NCBI GenBank assembly: GCA_947499725.1
Contig: CANMPK010000001.1
Location: forward strand, 434,001 to 498,000
Direction: 5' to 3'
DNA from: an uncultured Paracoccaceae bacterium
GTDB lineage: Bacteria > Pseudomonadota > Alphaproteobacteria > Rhodobacterales > Rhodobacteraceae
DNA: 64,000 bases
Of the stretch, positions 51,635 through 58,112 are shown piece after piece. The notes under the pieces were generated by a model. That model was not told the origin of the DNA. It saw only the letters and a list, made by a program, of their open reading frames with translations, and ran no database searches. Each line of letters starts with the position of its first letter. The stretch's first letter is position 1. Both the position numbers and the translations under genes were made by a program.

Positions 51635-52441
<807 letters not shown>

Positions 52442-52526
52442 GCGGGTGTGGCGGAATTGGTAGACGCACCAGATTTAGGTTCTGGCGCCGCAAGGCGTGG
52501 GGGTTCAAGTCCCTTCACCCGCACCA
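52442..52526 (+). tRNA. tRNA-Leu (anticodon UAG)
   Basis: This 85-nucleotide class II tRNA has acceptor stem GCGGGTG/CACCCGC, D-arm with GGTAGACGC, anticodon stem CCAGA/TCTGG around loop TTTAGGT with anticodon TAG (52476-52478), a long variable arm (CGCCGCAAGGCG) and the TTCAAGT T-loop. The terminal CCA is encoded (52524-52526). The 3' part from the first base of the anticodon loop is duplicated 1347 bases downstream. Confidence 0.97.
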
Positions 52527-52536
52527 CTTTGATTTT
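52474..52536 (+). repeat. 63-bp direct repeat within and after tRNA-Leu (attL-like)
   Basis: This segment is identical by eye over 63 bases to 53821-53883. It starts at the first nucleotide of the anticodon loop, covers the 3' part of the tRNA including CCA, and continues 10 bases past its end. Tyrosine recombinases that target tRNA genes often recombine in the anticodon loop, so this has the form of an attachment site. Confidence 0.88.
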
Positions 52537-52904
52537 AAATAAAAATTTTGTTTCGCTTGGTGTCGTAGGGAGAGTTTTTTTGCGCGGTTTCCCAGTTTTT
52601 CTCCCATTTCACGCTTTGTTTGCTATTTGTTCTTAATTTAAGTTATTGATTTTATTGAGTTTTATTTCTTGCGTCAGACCGGAAATCTGGTGAATATTCT
52701 TTGTTTTCAAAGCTCTTATATCAATTTTCTCATTAGCTCTGTAAAGTTGTGCAATCGATACTTTCTGAATTTGAAGTAAGCAACTGTATACACGAATTTT
52801 GTCTCAAAAGAGGTTCAGCATTTCTATCTTTCTTTCAGGCCCACAACCTGAATGCGCACTCAGCTAAGATAGGTAGGGCCTTGTTAACTAATTAAGGATT
52901 TACG
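52537..52904. other. AT-rich leader region inside the element
   Basis: The stretch contains the left inner repeat and the presumed promoter of the HNH gene. AATTAAGGA directly upstream of the ATG at 52905 includes an AAGGA ribosome site. No further reading frame is convincing. Confidence 0.4.
52587..52650 (+). repeat. Inner imperfect repeat, left (possible recombinase arm site)
   Basis: GTTTCCCAGTTT at 52587-52598 and TTAAGTTATTGAT at 52638-52650 recur in the same order and almost the same spacing (51 versus 50 bases) at 53738-53800. The left copy begins 50 bases after the left 63-bp repeat. Accessory binding sites of integrases have this kind of placement; the role is inferred. Confidence 0.5.
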
Positions 52905-53666
52905 ATGCTCTCTAGAACTATCCCGCCCCAAATTGCTCAGCAGCTTCGCGCTGAATCCGGATTTGGTTGCGCGGTTTGTGGATGCCCAATCGTCGAGTAC
53001 CATCACATTATCCCTTGGGCTGAACGTAAACATTATGAAGCAGAGCATATGGTAGCTCTTTGTCGGAATCACCACCAAGAACTTGGGAAACAACGCAAGG
53101 AAGTTTCCTACGCGGCTAAACGGAATCCGATCAATATTAGGCACAAAAAGCTCCAAGGCTACCTTGTGACAAATAAAGAGAACCAAGCATTGAGATTAGG
53201 TAACACTAGGTTTGTTGGCTTTACCCATGCTGTCTCATATTATGGCATCCCTCTTTTCGGACATCGAATTGTGAACAAGGAAATTCGCTTGAACTGTTTC
53301 ATTCCGGATGAAGATTTTTTTCCAGACATAGAAGTTTCCGACAATAATCTCTCAGCAATGATCGGCAATTTTTGGGACATTGAGTTTAAGTCAAACTACG
53401 TCAAATTTAGGCGCAAAAAAGGAGAGGTCTTTCTCGAGCTTGATTTTCGAGGCGATGACGTAACAGTAAGGGGGCGATTTGATATAGAGGGGCGAGAGTA
53501 CAGGTTTTCTCCAAATCGCTGTGATTTCGGCGGCCCAAGAATAGAGGGCATAACATTTCAAGGATTTCCCGGCGCTACGGCAATCGGACACGGTGAAGCT
53601 GGCGTGCGCCTGCTTAAGCCAAACTTCGCGATGCGAGCGCCGCGAAAAACGCTTGTCCGAAAGTAG
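52905..53666 (+). CDS. HNH endonuclease-like protein of the tRNA-Leu element
   Basis: The protein has 253 residues. The N-terminal 60 hold an HNH zinc module: Cys22 and Cys25 (CAVC), His33-His34 (EYHHIIPWAE), His48 and Cys53/His56-His57 (LCRNHH). HNH domains cut DNA and occur in restriction enzymes, phage and mobile-element proteins. The remaining 190 residues are not a domain I know: a hydrophilic stretch, then strand-rich sequence (FRRKKGEVFLELDFRGDDVTVRGRFDIEGREYRF). AT-rich codon use marks it as acquired. It is the only evident gene between the repeats. It could be a defence nuclease or a leftover of a larger island. Confidence 0.82.
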   Translation: MLSRTIPPQIAQQLRAESGFGCAVCGCPIVEYHHIIPWAERKHYEAEHMVALCRNHHQELGKQRKEVSYAAKRNPINIRHKKLQGYLVTNKENQALRLGNTRFVGFTHAVSYYGIPLFGHRIVNKEIRLNCFIPDEDFFPDIEVSDNNLSAMIGNFWDIEFKSNYVKFRRKKGEVFLELDFRGDDVTVRGRFDIEGREYRFSPNRCDFGGPRIEGITFQGFPGATAIGHGEAGVRLLKPNFAMRAPRKTLVRK

Positions 53667-53737
53667 TTTGCACAAAGCTCTCTTTTTAACGACGATGCGG
53701 CAACCTACAATGGCTGAAATATTTCTCATAAAATGCC

Positions 53738-53800
53738 GTTTCCCAGTTTCACCCCTTGTTCACGTCATGTCTTGGGAAACTTTTTTATTAAGTGATTGAT
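53738..53800 (+). repeat. Inner imperfect repeat, right (possible recombinase arm site)
   Basis: The right copy has GTTTCCCAGTTT (53738-53749) and TTAAGTGATTGAT (53788-53800) and ends 20 bases before the right 63-bp repeat. Within it GTTTCCCA and TGGGAAAC form an inverted repeat followed by TTTTTT, so it might also end transcription of the HNH gene. Confidence 0.5.
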
Positions 53801-53820
53801 AATAAACGAGATGGGTGGAT

Positions 53821-53873
53821 TTTAGGTTCTGGCGCCGCAAGGCGTGGGGGTTCAAGTCCCTTCACCCGCACCA
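53821..53873 (+). pseudogene. 3' fragment of tRNA-Leu
   Basis: The fragment runs from the anticodon loop to CCA and lacks the acceptor 5' strand, D-arm and anticodon 5' stem, so it cannot be a functional tRNA. It is the displaced or element-borne tRNA end at the right boundary. Confidence 0.88.
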
Positions 53874-53883
53874 CTTTGATTTT
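53821..53883 (+). repeat. 63-bp direct repeat, downstream copy (attR-like)
   Basis: This copy is identical to 52474-52536. It marks the right end of the element, after which sequence of ordinary composition resumes. Confidence 0.88.
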
Positions 53884-53915
53884 CAAGCAAAATACGGGTT
53901 CAGGGACTTAAGGTC

Positions 53916-55214
53916 TTATTGCGCTGTGGCTGTGATGTCGGCGCGTTTGGACAAGAGGTGCTCTGCGATTGCTATGAATTGCGCATCGCCCTTCGCCAGC
54001 AGGTCGTTTTGCTCGAGCGGGTCTTGCGCAAGATCAAACAACTTTGGGTCGGATTGTTCGGGTACCACCAGTTTGTAATCGCCTTCACGCAAGGACCAGC
54101 CATAGACGCCGCCGCCTTTGGTTTCACGGTTGGTGAAGTGTTCGACGTAGATGACATCGCGTTCGCTGGTGCCTCCGGCGAGGGCGGGGCTGAAATCAAT
54201 GCTGTCAGGCGATGAGAAACGTCCGCCCGTGAGGCTGGCGATGGTGGCGGTGAGGTCTGTTGTGTTGACGAAAGCCTCTGTGCGTCCGGCTGTGACACCT
54301 GGGCCTGATACGATCAAGGGCACATGGGTGCCGCTGTCGTAGATTGTGCCTTTGGCGCGGTGATTGCCGTAGAAACCGCGGGTGACTTGGTTGGGGGAGC
54401 CGTTGTCGCCGAGGAACATCACAAGCGTGTTGTCGCGTTCTTCTGGCGGAATGCTGTCGAGGAGACGTCCCATTTCAGTGTCGAGCGCCTCGAGCATGGC
54501 TTGGTAATAGGGCAGTGGGTTTTGGCCGATGTCGCTTTCGGTGTTGGGCAGATCGTCAAAGCTGTGCAGATCGTTTGGGGGCTGGTGGAACGGCGCGTGG
54601 GGGGCGTTGAACGCCAGCCAGAGGAACCACGGTTGAGATTGATCGTTGATCCAATCAATGGCGCGATCTGCGAGGACGGTGGTGGAATAGCCGTTGATTT
54701 GGGTTTCCTTGCCGTCTTGGATGGCTGTCCAGTTGAAGTAGTCTGGGATGCCGCCTGAATAGAGTCCGAAATAGTCGGAAACGCCCATGTCTGCAGGGGC
54801 ATCATAGCCGTTGCGGCGGCCTGAGATGTGCCATTTGCCGATCACATTGGAGGCGTAGCCGGTTGGGGCGAGGGCATCAAAGAGCGTGTAGGTGTCTGGT
54901 GAAAGTGCATCGCTGCCATTGGGCGCGACGGGCGCGCCGACGCCGGTGCGAAAGCCGTATTGGCCGCTCATGATTGTTGCGCGGGTGGGCGAGCAGGTTG
55001 GGGCGGCGTATGCGTTTTCAAAGACCACACCAGAAGCGCACATGGCTTCGAGGTTGGGCATTGGGGCCTGTTGATTGCCCAGATCGTAGCAGTTGGAGGC
55101 GTCCAGCCCCATGTCATCGGCGATGATGAGCAGAATATTGGGTTTGGCCTGGGCGGTTTGGGCCGCCGTTGCGCTGAGGGCGCAGATCGATAGGGACAGA
55201 ACGTGGCGTTTCAT
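53916..55214 (-). CDS. Secreted type I sulfatase
   Basis: This is a 432-residue precursor with a signal peptide (residues 1-23). The mature enzyme starts KPNILLIIADDMG, the first metal-site Asp pair. The formylglycine motif CSPTRATIMSGQYG has Cys74 as the residue oxidised to formylglycine. The GDNGSPNQ metal site and GKWHISG are also present. It hydrolyses sulfate esters, in marine bacteria often on polysaccharides. It needs a formylglycine-generating enzyme or anSME, which is not in the window. The trefoil-like gene precedes it by 71 bases on the same strand. Confidence 0.93.
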   Translation of the reverse strand: MKRHVLSLSICALSATAAQTAQAKPNILLIIADDMGLDASNCYDLGNQQAPMPNLEAMCASGVVFENAYAAPTCSPTRATIMSGQYGFRTGVGAPVAPNGSDALSPDTYTLFDALAPTGYASNVIGKWHISGRRNGYDAPADMGVSDYFGLYSGGIPDYFNWTAIQDGKETQINGYSTTVLADRAIDWINDQSQPWFLWLAFNAPHAPFHQPPNDLHSFDDLPNTESDIGQNPLPYYQAMLEALDTEMGRLLDSIPPEERDNTLVMFLGDNGSPNQVTRGFYGNHRAKGTIYDSGTHVPLIVSGPGVTAGRTEAFVNTTDLTATIASLTGGRFSSPDSIDFSPALAGGTSERDVIYVEHFTNRETKGGGVYGWSLREGDYKLVVPEQSDPKLFDLAQDPLEQNDLLAKGDAQFIAIAEHLLSKRADITATAQ

Positions 55215-55285
55215 GTGGCTCTTTCAAGTTGGGTGCAAGGCGTCAAAAGCTGCCTTGCGCAGTGACATGATGAACGCTGAGCTGC

Positions 55286-55810
55286 TTAGTTTTTGATGAC
55301 CCATTCTTTGAGGGACGCCTCGGTTGTCGCGCAGTCGGTGAGGACAAGCGTGCGGGACATGAAGGGGCCAGCTGATTTGCTCGCGTTCCCAACTGTTACG
55401 CAGAGCGCAGGGCTTTCCGTCGGATGGATCGTGTTTGCGGCGGCATCCAAGGTGAACTGTTGCGCCGTGTCGCTTGGATCGCAGGTGACCAGTGCGAAGG
55501 TGCTTTGATCGTTTGGCGCATGTGCCATGCAATAGTTTTCGTAGGCGACGGATGTGATGGCCTGTGCCTTTGCATCGTAGGAAAACTGCACATCACCGCC
55601 CTGCGGTTTGCAGGAGTGGGCTTGCAGGCGTTCGCCAAAGCCACGGCCGAGGGTGTCGATACACCAGCCGAGATTATCTTGTTCGTCGAGATTGTCGGCG
55701 AGGTAGATCACCGGCGCTGGGGTTTGCAGGGCCGGGGCTTCGGCAAAGGCAGGGGTGGTGACAGCGATCGGAAGGGCGCAGAGAAGGGCGTAATTTCGCA
55801 GTGTTTTCAT
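55286..55810 (-). CDS. Secreted ricin-type beta-trefoil-like protein
   Basis: This is a 174-residue precursor with a signal peptide ending AFA-EA. The mature part resembles the ricin B/beta-trefoil pattern: GWCIDTLGRG, LQAHSCKPQGGDVQFSYD, NYCMAHA, LVTCDPSDTAQQFTLD, PALCVTVGN, with paired cysteines in each lobe. Such domains bind sugars. Together with the sulfatase it suggests a role on sulfated glycans, but this is inference. AGGTGA precedes the ATG. Confidence 0.72.
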   Translation of the reverse strand: MKTLRNYALLCALPIAVTTPAFAEAPALQTPAPVIYLADNLDEQDNLGWCIDTLGRGFGERLQAHSCKPQGGDVQFSYDAKAQAITSVAYENYCMAHAPNDQSTFALVTCDPSDTAQQFTLDAAANTIHPTESPALCVTVGNASKSAGPFMSRTLVLTDCATTEASLKEWVIKN

Positions 55811-56032
55811 AAGGTCACCTATATGAATTGAATTGGTAAAATGGGTCTTTTGGCTACTATACCCAGCCTAGGCGATGGCGCAAAAGCGGATCAGGGGTTT
55901 CGGCAACTCTCTGCTTAAACAAGTGTTTCGAGCCTGTAGGGTGCCGTTTGGTTAATTTGAAAATCACATAATTTAATTCTTGACTCTTTTTGTCGGTAGG
56001 TGCAAATCGGCGCCAAGAGTCGTGCCCGCCTT

Positions 56033-56091
56033 TAGAAGCTAGCCGTTGAAATCGCATGTGTCGATTGCGGCTGGGAAAAGCTTCTAGGGGA
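56033..56091 (+). promoter_or_regulatory. Structured leader of the heme receptor mRNA
   Basis: TAGAAGCT (56033-56040) pairs with AGCTTCTA (56079-56086); inside it AGCCG pairs with CGGCT (56068-56072) and AATCG with CGATT (56062-56066). The 3' arm runs into AGGGGA (56086-56091), the ribosome binding site of the receptor gene. A fold this close to the site could modulate translation. The TTTAGAA at 56031 also resembles half of an Irr-type iron box. Confidence 0.5.
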
Positions 56092-56096
56092 ATGAG

Positions 56097-58112
56097 ATGC
56101 TAAACAAAACTTCAGTGATTGCGCTTTGCGCAAGCATGGTAACGACTGGGCTTCACGCGCAGGATTTTGGGGATGCCGAGTATATCGGCGAGGTGACTTT
56201 GGGCCAGAGCCGTCGCGGGGTGCAGACGGATGTGGCGGCGTCTACCACTGTGATTGACCAAGCCGAGATCGAGGCGCGTCAGGCGACCACATTGGGTCAG
56301 CTGGTGGATTCCATCCCGAACGTGTCTTTGATCAACGGTATTCTGCCGCAGGGCTCTGGGATTACGATCCGTGGTCTGGGCGCGCAGGCGGGGACCTATG
56401 GGACCGACGGCAAGGTGAACATTGTTGTGGATGGCGTGCAATCTGGCGCGGAAGAAATTTACCGTAACGGGTCTTTCTTGTCTTTGGAGCCCGAGCTGTT
56501 CAAAGAGTTGAACGTGACACGCGGCCCTGCGGATGGGTTCCGCTATTCTGGTGGCGCTGTTGGCGGTACGGTTGAGGCCACAACCAAGGATGCGCGTGAT
56601 TTCTTGGAAGGGGATGATACGTTCTCTTTCCGTCAGAAGCTGGGCTATGAATCCAATGGCAACGGTACGCTGACAACATCCATTCTGTCCTTCGCGCCGG
56701 ATGAGAAATTTGACGTGATTGCCTTTTATGGCAAACGTACATCCGAAGATCGTGTGGATGGCGCGGGCAATACGCTGACGGGCACAGAGTTCGATCAAAC
56801 TGGCGCGATGCTGAAGGCGAATTATCGGTTAAACGACGAACACAAGCTGACGTTTGGCTATATCTACAACGAGATCCCAGAGCGCGATGTGTTCTACAGC
56901 GCCTATGATCCAAGTTTTTCCACCGAGAAAGTGGATCGCGATACGCAGGATACAACGGGGTATCTGGAGTATAACTATAATCCAGTCGACAATGATGCCA
57001 TCAATCTGACTGCGCGGTTGCAGTACAAGAAAGAAGTGATCGATATCCTGTCTTTGACAGGGGCGGGCAGCATTTATGATGCGGATCACCAGTCGACAAC
57101 GACGTCGCTGCGCATCACAAACGAAGCTTTGTTCAACACGGGCAACATTGCGCATACTTTGCTCACTGGCATTGAAGTTGGTGAGCGTGAGCGGACGTCT
57201 TATGCGGATGGGACAACAACCAACGATATTTCTGCGCCGGGTGGAACGGATGAATATGTTGCGGTTTACCTGACCGACGAAATTGAACTGTCTGATCGTT
57301 TCACGCTGACGCCTCAGCTGCGCTATGAAAGCCAGACTTTGACGTCTTTGAATAACGGTTCTGGGTTCTCTCGCGGGGCGGTTGTTCCTGCAATTGCAGA
57401 TGGCACGTCGTATTCTTCGCAAGCCTTTACGGGTGCGCTGTCTGCGCGTTACGAGCTGACAGATAGCGTGGCTGTGTTTGGTACGGTTGCCTACAACGAG
57501 AACCTGCCAATTCTAGATGATCTGCGCAGCGCCTTTATCACCCAGTCTGAAAAAGCTGAGAGCCTCGAGCTAGGTGTTTCTTACGATGGCTTTGATGTCT
57601 TCACTGGTGGGGACACATTGCAGGCGAAGTTGACGGGGTACAAAACTAATATTTGGGATGTGACCACCTACTTTGGCGTCACAGATGTTGAACTGTATGG
57701 CGCAGAGCTGGAGCTGTCTTATGCGAACCCGAACTTCTATGTTGATTTCAACATGGCGCGGGCGCGTGGTGAGCAGAATGGCGGCACAGCCTATTTTAGC
57801 CGCGCAACTGGTGACACGGCGCAGCTGACACTGGGTAAGCGTTTCATGGATGACCAGTTGGATGTGAGCATCGAAGCGAAACACGCTTGGGCGAACAACC
57901 GCACGACCTCGACCACTGGCGCGCTGGCGCCGTCTGAGGATTACACTGTGTTCACTTTGGCCAGCAGCTACACAGCGGATTCCGGTGCGCTGGAAGGTGT
58001 TCAGTTCAACGCGAGTGTCGAGAACCTGTTTGACACGGAATACCGCGCTTACGGCAACACGCGTAATGGCGCAGGCCGTACATTCAAGTTCAGCGTTTCC
58101 AAAACATTCTAA
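56097..58112 (+). CDS. hmuR: TonB-dependent heme/hemoglobin receptor
   Basis: This 671-residue outer-membrane receptor has a signal peptide ending LHA-Q, a TonB-box-like EYIGEVTLG, and a plug domain (TTLGQLVDSIPNVSLINGI, GITIRGLG, ELNVTRGPADGFRYSGGAVGGTVEATTKD). A 22-strand barrel ends in the typical aromatic residue (VSKTF). The following genes encode a heme-degrading factor, a heme ABC importer and ExbBD/TonB, so heme or hemoglobin is the inferred ligand. AGGGGA lies five bases before the ATG, next to a hairpin. Confidence 0.93.
   Translation: MLNKTSVIALCASMVTTGLHAQDFGDAEYIGEVTLGQSRRGVQTDVAASTTVIDQAEIEARQATTLGQLVDSIPNVSLINGILPQGSGITIRGLGAQAGTYGTDGKVNIVVDGVQSGAEEIYRNGSFLSLEPELFKELNVTRGPADGFRYSGGAVGGTVEATTKDARDFLEGDDTFSFRQKLGYESNGNGTLTTSILSFAPDEKFDVIAFYGKRTSEDRVDGAGNTLTGTEFDQTGAMLKANYRLNDEHKLTFGYIYNEIPERDVFYSAYDPSFSTEKVDRDTQDTTGYLEYNYNPVDNDAINLTARLQYKKEVIDILSLTGAGSIYDADHQSTTTSLRITNEALFNTGNIAHTLLTGIEVGERERTSYADGTTTNDISAPGGTDEYVAVYLTDEIELSDRFTLTPQLRYESQTLTSLNNGSGFSRGAVVPAIADGTSYSSQAFTGALSARYELTDSVAVFGTVAYNENLPILDDLRSAFITQSEKAESLELGVSYDGFDVFTGGDTLQAKLTGYKTNIWDVTTYFGVTDVELYGAELELSYANPNFYVDFNMARARGEQNGGTAYFSRATGDTAQLTLGKRFMDDQLDVSIEAKHAWANNRTTSTTGALAPSEDYTVFTLASSYTADSGALEGVQFNASVENLFDTEYRAYGNTRNGAGRTFKFSVSKTF

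What the first reader, a model, noticed from the sequence alone, without database searches (positions are those of the whole stretch)
52474..53883. A 1.35 kb mini-element in tRNA-Leu(UAG) bounded by perfect 63-bp repeats and carrying one HNH gene
The sequence shows an intact tRNA-Leu, a perfect 63-bp repeat that starts exactly at the anticodon loop, AT-rich content between the repeats and one clear gene. Integration at tRNA anticodon loops by tyrosine recombinases is well established, but such islands normally encode their integrase. An element this short without one is either the stump of a deleted island or a trans-mobilised satellite with an HNH cargo, which would be a poorly described class.
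Basis: partly seen in the sequence, partly recalled or inferred. Interest (0 to 1): 0.8.

Follow-up and report, generated by a model that had tools for sequence, protein, structure and literature searches.

The report
Integrase-less HNH mini-island in tRNA-Leu
A tiny 1.35-kb insertion in a bacterial leucine tRNA gene carries both sets of DNA docking sites of a known group of phage-type integrases and a single nuclease-like gene, but no integrase of its own, so it is either a stripped-down relic or a hitch-hiker that depends on a phage to move it.

Summary
A perfect 63-bp repeat (52474-52536 / 53821-53883) starts at the first base of the tRNA-Leu(UAG) anticodon loop and encloses AT-rich DNA with one intact HNH gene. 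New here: both ends carry integrase arm-type sites (GTTTCCC) at the positions seen in integrase-bearing elements at the same tRNA (+60/+72 left; -83/-47 right). The arm motif tracks the integrase clade. GTTTCCC goes with 333-aa integrases of prophages (L055, L057, G312) that are 74-90% identical to one another. The element therefore arose by tyrosine-recombinase integration and keeps both arms, yet shows no trace of int, and none of the five integrase-family proteins found in its genome is of that clade. It fits the known idea of a cis-mobilizable element (CIME) in extreme miniature. Int loss is common here (10 of 16 uncut attL sites), so a deletion origin is likeliest. But of the six int-less sites this is the only one with an intact attR in the stretch examined, so a unit mobilised in trans stays open. 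HNH relatives sit just downstream of tRNA-Tyr, tRNA-Gly and, inside a satellite-like element, tRNA-Thr.

The parts
52442..52526 (+). tRNA-Leu(UAG), intact; its 3' half from 52474 is inferred to be element-derived after integration
   Evidence: ARAGORN; Rfam RF00005 55.7 bits
52474..52536 (+). attL core: 63-bp perfect repeat starting at the first base of the anticodon loop and ending 10 bp past CCA
   Evidence: sequence
52587..52594 (+). left arm-type site 1, GTTTCCCA, +60 after CCA
   Evidence: +60/+61 in five int-bearing relatives (G312, G388, G229, G100, G246); spacer 58-61 in 19 of 20 loci examined, though the pattern allowed 54-68
52599..52606 (+). left arm-type site 2, degenerate (TTCTCCCA), +72 after CCA
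   Evidence: second site at +72/+73 in six int-bearing relatives
52614..52904 (+). 34% G+C leader without a convincing ORF, at the place where int would lie in relatives; no int homology
52905..53666 (+). HNH-family gene, 253 aa: N-terminal HNH domain (EYHHIIPW, CxxC...CxxxH) plus a long C-terminal beta domain without a structural match
53738..53744 (+). right outer arm-type site, GTTTCCC, starts 83 bp before the attR core
   Evidence: -83 in L055, L057 and (ATTTCCC) G312; with each element's own motif, -83/-84 in 10 of 10 attR compared, 5-7 of 7 bases matching
53774..53780 (-). right inner arm-type site, inverted (GGGAAAC), starts 47 bp before the attR core
   Evidence: -47 in G312, L055, L057, G388, G229; -48 in G100, L056, G246, G102; one search shows the 40-bp spacing to the core
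53821..53883 (+). attR core: the displaced 3' half of the original tRNA-Leu plus 10 bp

Best explanation
This is a non-autonomous, att-bounded mini-island: in kind a CIME (cis-mobilizable element: att sites kept, integration genes lost) of phage or phage-satellite origin. Shown: it lies in tRNA-Leu(UAG), its two 63-bp cores are identical, its four arm-type sites have the geometry of the tRNA-Leu(UAG) integrase family and the arm motif (GTTTCCC) of one integrase clade, it has no recognisable integrase or int fragment, and its one gene is an intact reading frame. Inferred: a phage or satellite carrying that integrase clade integrated here; the element then lost everything but the attP arms and the HNH cargo gene, or was already in that form when it came in. 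It can be cut out or re-integrated only when a phage or prophage of that clade supplies the integrase and excision factor. The HNH protein most likely acts as a DNA nuclease with a recognition domain of its own, of the kind that phages and satellites carry against competing phages.
For: Perfect 63-bp repeat from the anticodon loop. Arm sites at +60/+72 and -83/-47 as in int-bearing elements. Arm motif follows int clade: GTTTCCC with the ints of G312, L055 and L057 (74-90% identical to one another) and with the truncated int of G083; GTTTCGC with G388/G229 (74% identical); GTTTTACA with G100 and with the cut int of G246 (82% over 87 aa). No int homology in the element (best tblastn E about 0.04, chance level). 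The own genome shows 5 PF00589 proteins; compared with seven ints of this family, three give only 21-33% partial identity and two none at E 0.001. Int decay is frequent at this site: of 18 attL-like loci at a called tRNA-Leu(UAG) with an arm site at the right spacing, 6 have full-length int, 4 a truncated or interrupted one, 2 are cut by a contig end, 6 have none nearby. HNH relatives sit at attL of a 10.7-kb head-gene-bearing element in tRNA-Thr (L164) and in two phage records at 25-28% identity.
Against: The left arm's second site is degenerate, so the attP may be weak. No exact empty site was found. No donor phage carrying this HNH gene at tRNA-Leu(UAG) was found. The clean loss of every trace of int just beyond the arm sites is tidier than the int pieces left in G083, G266 and G310. 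The nuclease and defence role is untested; the C-terminal domain has no convincing structural match.
Confidence: 0.62

Rival explanations
1. A true trans-mobilised mini-satellite: the 1.35-kb unit itself integrates, excises and spreads using the integrase of GTTTCCC-clade phages, the phage counterpart of a MITE, paying its way with an HNH nuclease.
For: Both cores and both arms are present at the expected positions with no int residue. The two cores are still identical, whereas the only other int-less locus with a visible attR has a diverged copy (G026, 9.55 kb away). Of the 6 int-less attL-like loci only the window showed an intact attR in the stretch examined. The cargo ORF is intact, and HNH relatives recur next to other tRNA genes with no integrase seen beside them (L004 tRNA-Tyr, L015 tRNA-Gly).
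Against: Only one copy is known: no other HNH element at tRNA-Leu(UAG) in 394 family genomes. One arm site is degenerate. No helper integrase of the clade found in the present genome. The L004 and L015 insertions show no clear direct repeat.
Confidence: 0.27
2. A recently formed deletion stump of an ordinary prophage or satellite that no integrase can use any more (dead relic).
For: 10 of 16 uncut attL-like loci at this tRNA lack a full-length int beside attL; degenerate second left arm site.
Against: Identical cores, arm sites on both sides and an intact 253-aa frame are not what the other int-less sites show.
Confidence: 0.25
3. The HNH gene is itself the mobilising agent (homing-endonuclease-like): it cuts conserved loci (tRNA, parE, ribosomal operons) and is copied in by repair.
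For: Relatives lie beside tRNA-Tyr, tRNA-Gly and tRNA-Thr, directly after parE (L016, L018) and inside ribosomal-protein operons (L003, L013).
Against: The window copy has integrase arm sites with conserved geometry, which homing does not need; the reconstituted tRNA would still be a target; no duplicated target was found around the relatives L003, L013, L016 and L018 (L016 again).
Confidence: 0.05
4. Chance or assembly artefact: repeat-induced misassembly or a simple tRNA fragment duplication.
For: tRNA duplications do occur (G211 has a tandem tRNA-Leu(UAG) duplication 238 bp apart).
Against: The insert begins at the anticodon loop, has foreign composition and a gene with homologues, and has arm sites at phage positions; the contig is 1.35 Mb long.
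Confidence: 0.02

Closest known systems
CIME (cis-mobilizable element), as in the IME review PMC5704250 (12 of 21 passages seen) and ssrA islands without integration module in Dehalococcoides, PMC3146451 (12 of 52 passages seen)
   Same: att sites retained, integration and transfer genes absent, integrated in the 3' end of an RNA gene
   Different: Those are decayed ICE/IME or larger islands, often described in tandem with a neighbour; this one is 1.35 kb, has one gene, stands alone, and its arms point to a phage integrase clade
Phage satellites (PICI, cf-PICI, PICMI; PMC10803314, 12 of 13 passages seen)
   Same: tRNA-type site-specific integration; a relative of the HNH gene is cargo of a head-gene-bearing element (L164); satellites carry anti-phage cargo
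   Different: [quoted passage not shown] here there is no int, regulator, replication or packaging gene
Prophages and islands with the 333-343 aa tyrosine integrases at tRNA-Leu(UAG) of Rhodobacteraceae (G312, L055, L057, G388, G229, G100, G246, G102)
   Same: attB, core, arm-site positions and (G312, L055, L057) arm motif
   Different: They encode the integrase (next to attL where attL is held); the three whose two ends lie on one contig span about 7, 13 and 42 kb (G388, G102, G312)
MITEs and CALINs (hitcher review PMC11389934, passages with the searched terms seen)
   Same: short non-autonomous unit that keeps the recombinase's sites and relies on a recombinase in trans
   Different: Those rely on transposases or integron integrases; here a phage-type tyrosine integrase would be needed

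Membership tests
CIME | attL and attR of a site-specific recombinase both retained | tested here: met
   63-bp perfect cores, arm sites on both sides with conserved geometry
CIME | no integration or transfer genes inside | tested here: met
   ORF list; no int homology
CIME | mobilised in cis or trans with a related element | not testable with these tools
   Needs an excision or transfer assay; no helper int of the clade found in the own genome
tRNA-Leu(UAG) tyrosine-integrase element family | core starting at the anticodon loop of tRNA-Leu(UAG) | tested here: met
tRNA-Leu(UAG) tyrosine-integrase element family | two left arm sites at about +60/+72 and right arm sites at about -83/-47 | tested here: met
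   second left site degenerate
tRNA-Leu(UAG) tyrosine-integrase element family | integrase gene next to attL | tested here: not met
Phage satellite (PICI, cf-PICI, PICMI) | own integrase/excision, regulator and replication genes | tested here: not met
   One convincing ORF only; requirement as stated in PMC10803314
HNH nuclease | HNH motif with conserved cysteines and HNH fold | tested here: met
   Invariant EYHHIIPW, C22, C25, C53, H57 in 8 of 8 aligned sequences; model pLDDT 86.8; Foldseek prob 1.00 to EcoKMcrA, though E 0.017; Pfam HNH just below cut-off; catalytic activity not tested
Type IV (McrA-like) restriction enzyme | modified-base recognition domain plus HNH, restriction of modified DNA | tested here: inconclusive
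   PADLOC mREase_IV E 0.003 over the HNH part only; C-terminal domain unmatched; activity not testable here

The most novel reading that the evidence does not exclude
A sub-1.5-kb, one-gene hitch-hiker of phage integrases: a full set of attP arms plus a single nuclease gene that moves only when a phage of the matching integrase clade supplies Int in trans, with the nuclease serving host and element against rival phages. It would be the phage-integrase counterpart of a MITE and smaller than the satellites described in the papers whose passages I saw. The lone HNH genes downstream of tRNA-Tyr and tRNA-Gly in other genomes could be further members.
Probability: 0.27. Interest if true: 0.75.

Novelty: new variant of a known kind. 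Interest (0 to 1): 0.47.

Why it matters
If mobile, it shows how little DNA is needed to ride on phage integrases (a few hundred bases of att arms plus one gene) and gives a route by which single defence-like genes can spread without their own recombinase. Even if it is a relic, the locus gives a readable code linking arm-type motif to integrase clade at one tRNA (GTTTCCC, GTTTCGC, GTTTTACA), so integrase-less islands can be assigned to a helper from sequence alone and the prediction tested in a two-plasmid assay.

Tried and rejected
Exact empty site: the downstream flank (53884-58100) is not beside tRNA-Leu in any congener. DNA matches to it occur in 5 of the 8 congeners (G002, G003, G005, G006, G007), partial and at other places; 3 have none.

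Similar DNA: no blastn match of the insert in phages or plasmids. The right arm region 53667-53840 is matched by blastn in 1 of 198 family genomes, the own one; arm sites are recognisable only by motif and position.

Direct repeats around the HNH relatives L003, L004, L013-L018: none significant. A 13-of-15 match to the tRNA-Gly end lies about 140 bp after the HNH gene of L015 but is no better than shuffles (36 of 100 reach it), so it is not claimed. On the opposite strand of L004 a match reached the shuffle maximum (1 of 100) but lies outside the insert and is not used.

RNA families: only the tRNA. Promoter and terminator scans: 4 and 4 found against means of 2.1 and 1.9 in shuffles. Viral contigs: the core pattern hit 4 contigs, three prophage ends (L055-L057) and L054, a virus with 19 tRNA genes of its own; the arm patterns gave 10, 8 and 0 stretches, of which only L055 and L057 are this kind of attR. 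Homing endonuclease and assembly artefact: see rivals.

Controls that limit the pattern searches: the reversed pattern gave 5 matches against 8 real ones, and of the 8, G028, G234 and G148 are the tRNA itself. In one search the reversed pattern gave 9 matches against 34 real ones. So the raw numbers are not specific; I rely on the tRNA beside the match and on the narrow spacing.

Dropped rows: one search listed 34 places in 32 genomes. 30 came as loci and were examined; 10 without a tRNA were dropped as chance and 20 went into: 19 at an ARAGORN tRNA-Leu(UAG), and G253. G265 (spacer 55, no second site) is set aside as chance, leaving 18 at the tRNA. G253 has only the last bases of the core and no tRNA upstream, so it is not counted. 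Four places had no locus: G259 and G337 were not examined; two of G256 lie in L154. A weak NCBIfam match of the HNH part to IscB (E 0.004 for the window protein, far below cut-off) is taken as shared HNH fold only.

Full report
1. Observation. The window contains one tRNA gene, tRNA-Leu at 52442-52526, anticodon TAG. A perfect 63-bp direct repeat lies at 52474-52536 and 53821-53883. Its first base is the first base of the anticodon loop, and it runs 10 bp past the encoded CCA. The DNA between is 42.4% G+C against 51-55% in the flanks and holds one convincing gene, 52905-53666, 253 aa. In the own genome the element occurs once. The host is probably of the Rhodobacteraceae: of the 7 named loci with HNH relatives the six nearest are of that family, by name or, for Frigidibacter, Celeribacter, Shimia and Pseudooctadecabacter, by recall.

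2. A second layer: arm-type sites. GTTTCCCA occurs four times in the 64-kb window, all inside the element (the 7-mer GTTTCCC six times, four inside); one is in the HNH coding sequence, three are in the non-coding ends. To see whether these are integrase arm sites I looked for other elements at the same tRNA. In 295 family genomes, 277 carry the tRNA core and 13, the own one included, list two or more copies. Of four IMG/VR contigs with the core, three (L055, L056, L057) hold a prophage end at attR; the fourth, L054, is a virus with its own tRNA genes. The arms show a fixed architecture: two direct sites at +60/61 and +72/73 after the tRNA's CCA, next to which the integrase gene ends, and, scored with each element's own motif, an outer site starting 83-84 bp and an inner inverted site starting 47-48 bp before the attR core, in 10 of 10 attR compared (5 to 7 of 7 bases matching). 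The free motif scan also flagged extra sites at -63 or -76 in G388, G229, G100 and G102. The window element has all four positions, with exact matches at three and a degenerate second left site (TTCTCCCA).

3. Which integrase. The motif differs between elements: GTTTCCC in G312 (both sides) and in L055 and L057 (right side; the left end is not in the record), GTTTCGC in G388 and G229 (both sides), GTTTTACA-like in G100, G246 and (right side) L056. The G312 integrase (333 aa) is 74% identical to those of L055 and L057, which are 90% identical to each other; between motif groups identity is 48-61%. L055 carries beside attR a tail protein of PHROG 52; P2-like is my label, recalled. G083, also GTTTCCC, has a truncated integrase 97% identical to L057's over 156 aa. 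So the element's arms predict a GTTTCCC-clade phage integrase as its recombinase. The own genome shows five PF00589 proteins. Compared with seven integrases of this family, three give partial identities of 21-33% and two nothing at E 0.001, and the surroundings of the three island-type ones show no arm-site cluster. So no helper of the clade was found in this genome.

4. No integrase inside. tblastn of eight and then seven integrases against 52400-53900 gives nothing better than E about 0.04, and a search of the open frames next to the left arm gives none. The likeness to int-bearing elements stops at the arm sites; beyond them is a 291-bp, 34% G+C leader and then the HNH gene.

5. How common is int loss here? 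A pattern for core end plus arm site, searched in 394 family genomes, hit 34 places in 32 genomes (9 for the reversed control). 18 loci lie at a called tRNA-Leu(UAG) with a spacer of 58-61 nt, although the pattern allowed 54-68. Of these 18, 6 have a full-length int (G100, G072, G388, G312, G229, G102), 4 a truncated or interrupted one (G196, G083, G266, G310), 2 are cut by a contig end (G301, G246) and 6 have none in the 1.5 kb examined (G000, G256, G223, G235, G026, G054). So 10 of 16 uncut loci lack a full-length int beside attL, which favours a reduction origin. Against a dead relic: of the six int-less loci only the window has an intact attR in the stretch examined (about 8-19 kb downstream of the tRNA for the other five); G026 has a diverged copy 9.55 kb away and G256, G223, G235 and G054 show none there. 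G256 has further core copies on another contig, so its far end is unresolved.

6. The cargo gene. HNH motif residues are invariant in 8 of 8 aligned sequences. The best family is PHROG 6544, unknown function (E 1e-23). The AlphaFold2 model has mean pLDDT 86.8 and pTM 0.82: a small HNH domain followed by a long beta domain. Foldseek gives no match at E 0.001 in PDB or in viral models; the best in PDB are EcoKMcrA (E 0.017) and, from E 0.05, the CBASS effector Cap5. The beta domain is unmatched. A nuclease with its own recognition domain is my inference.

7. Where relatives live. 2 of 9 genus genomes and 10 of 394 family genomes, the own one included in both, hold a match at E 0.001; 6 of the 10 match only the HNH part. 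Genome contigs gave 7 loci, viral contigs 1, phages 2 records, plasmids 10. Of nine full-length copies of this family of bacteria (window, L003, L004, L013-L018), four lie 156-472 bp downstream of a tRNA gene and point away from it: tRNA-Leu (window), tRNA-Tyr (L004), tRNA-Gly (L015), tRNA-Thr (L017). The other five lie after parE (L016; L018, where the start overlaps the parE stop), in ribosomal-protein operons (L003, L013) and in another intergenic place (L014) (gene names by eye). None of the eight weak loci L005-L012 has a tRNA within about 1.5 kb. L017 is the left end of a 10.7-kb element, tRNA-Thr attL - HNH - head genes - terminase - integrase - attR (L164). Four of its proteins were searched (as L020): major head, head protease and terminase matched, one (portal-like by eye) had no match. 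I saw no tail gene, but the other ORFs were not searched. That is the layout of a capsid-forming satellite (cf-PICI; label recalled). So this HNH family does travel as attL-side cargo of a satellite-like element. A second element of 7.1 kb with head, portal and replication genes sits in tRNA-Leu(UAG) itself (G388, L092).

8. Presence and absence. All 8 congeners have tRNA-Leu(UAG) without this element. What follows the tRNA differs widely between them and none has the window's downstream flank there, so the site is a hot spot and the exact empty site is not seen.

9. Mechanism. Shown: the signature of integration by a tyrosine recombinase at the anticodon loop; arm sites of one integrase clade on both sides; no integrase. 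Inferred: Int (and an excision factor) must come from a phage of that clade. How it would pass between cells is open: with the helper phage or, since many Rhodobacteraceae make gene transfer agents that package a few kb (recalled, not tested here), by general DNA transfer and recombination in the conserved flanks. I put reduction from a phage or satellite, with possible mobility in trans, first; dead relic and independent mini-satellite are the two poles of that view, so the stated confidences overlap.

10. What is known. CIMEs (PMC5704250 and PMC3146451, passages seen) are the closest class. The hitcher review (PMC11389934, passages seen) lists MITEs and CALINs as recombinase-less hitchers; the passages on integrase that I saw name no phage-integrase counterpart. 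PMC10803314 (passages seen) says that excision of satellites requires integrases that they encode. The Rhodobacteraceae prophage survey PMC8224337 (passages seen; [quoted passage not shown] My seven searches (listings seen) showed no description of this element; they cover open-licence papers only.

Noticed in passing
L164:1456-12230 (Shimia sp. CNT1-13L.2, G405:C7): 10.7-kb element in tRNA-Thr with HNH cargo at attL, major head, protease, terminase and integrase, no tail gene seen by eye: cf-PICI-like satellite in Rhodobacteraceae.
   Followed up: partly
L092:207-7411 (G388): 7.1-kb element in tRNA-Leu(UAG) with integrase, head/protease, portal and replication initiator; the tRNA's variable region differs between attL and attR.
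   Followed up: partly
L018:7990-8010 and L016:7960-8004: HNH relatives directly after parE in two genera; in L018 a TTG start overlaps the parE stop codon, as if translationally coupled.
   Followed up: no
L003:1483-2240 and L013:3100-5600: HNH relatives inserted inside ribosomal-protein operons (near rplO; between rplP and rpmC).
   Followed up: no
L068:1611-1933 (G211): Tandem duplication of a whole tRNA-Leu(UAG) 238 bp apart, not an att repeat.
   Followed up: no
L027 (G008), L057:2398-3966: Genes that look by eye like large serine recombinases lie beside the same tRNA-Leu(UAG) end or attR, so a second recombinase class may use this hot spot.
   Followed up: no
window:52671-52692: A 22-nt stretch in the leader is 82% complementary to the tRNA anticodon arm (52467-52488) and can form a small hairpin; possibly chance.
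   Followed up: no
G256 C9 and C22 (L155, L154): Three core-plus-arm copies in one genome with both GTTTCCC and GTTTCGC types, and integrase-like frames in several pieces: apparently layered elements.
   Followed up: partly
L146 (G253): A core end with arm site and the start of an integrase match but no tRNA upstream: possibly an internal or displaced att copy.
   Followed up: no
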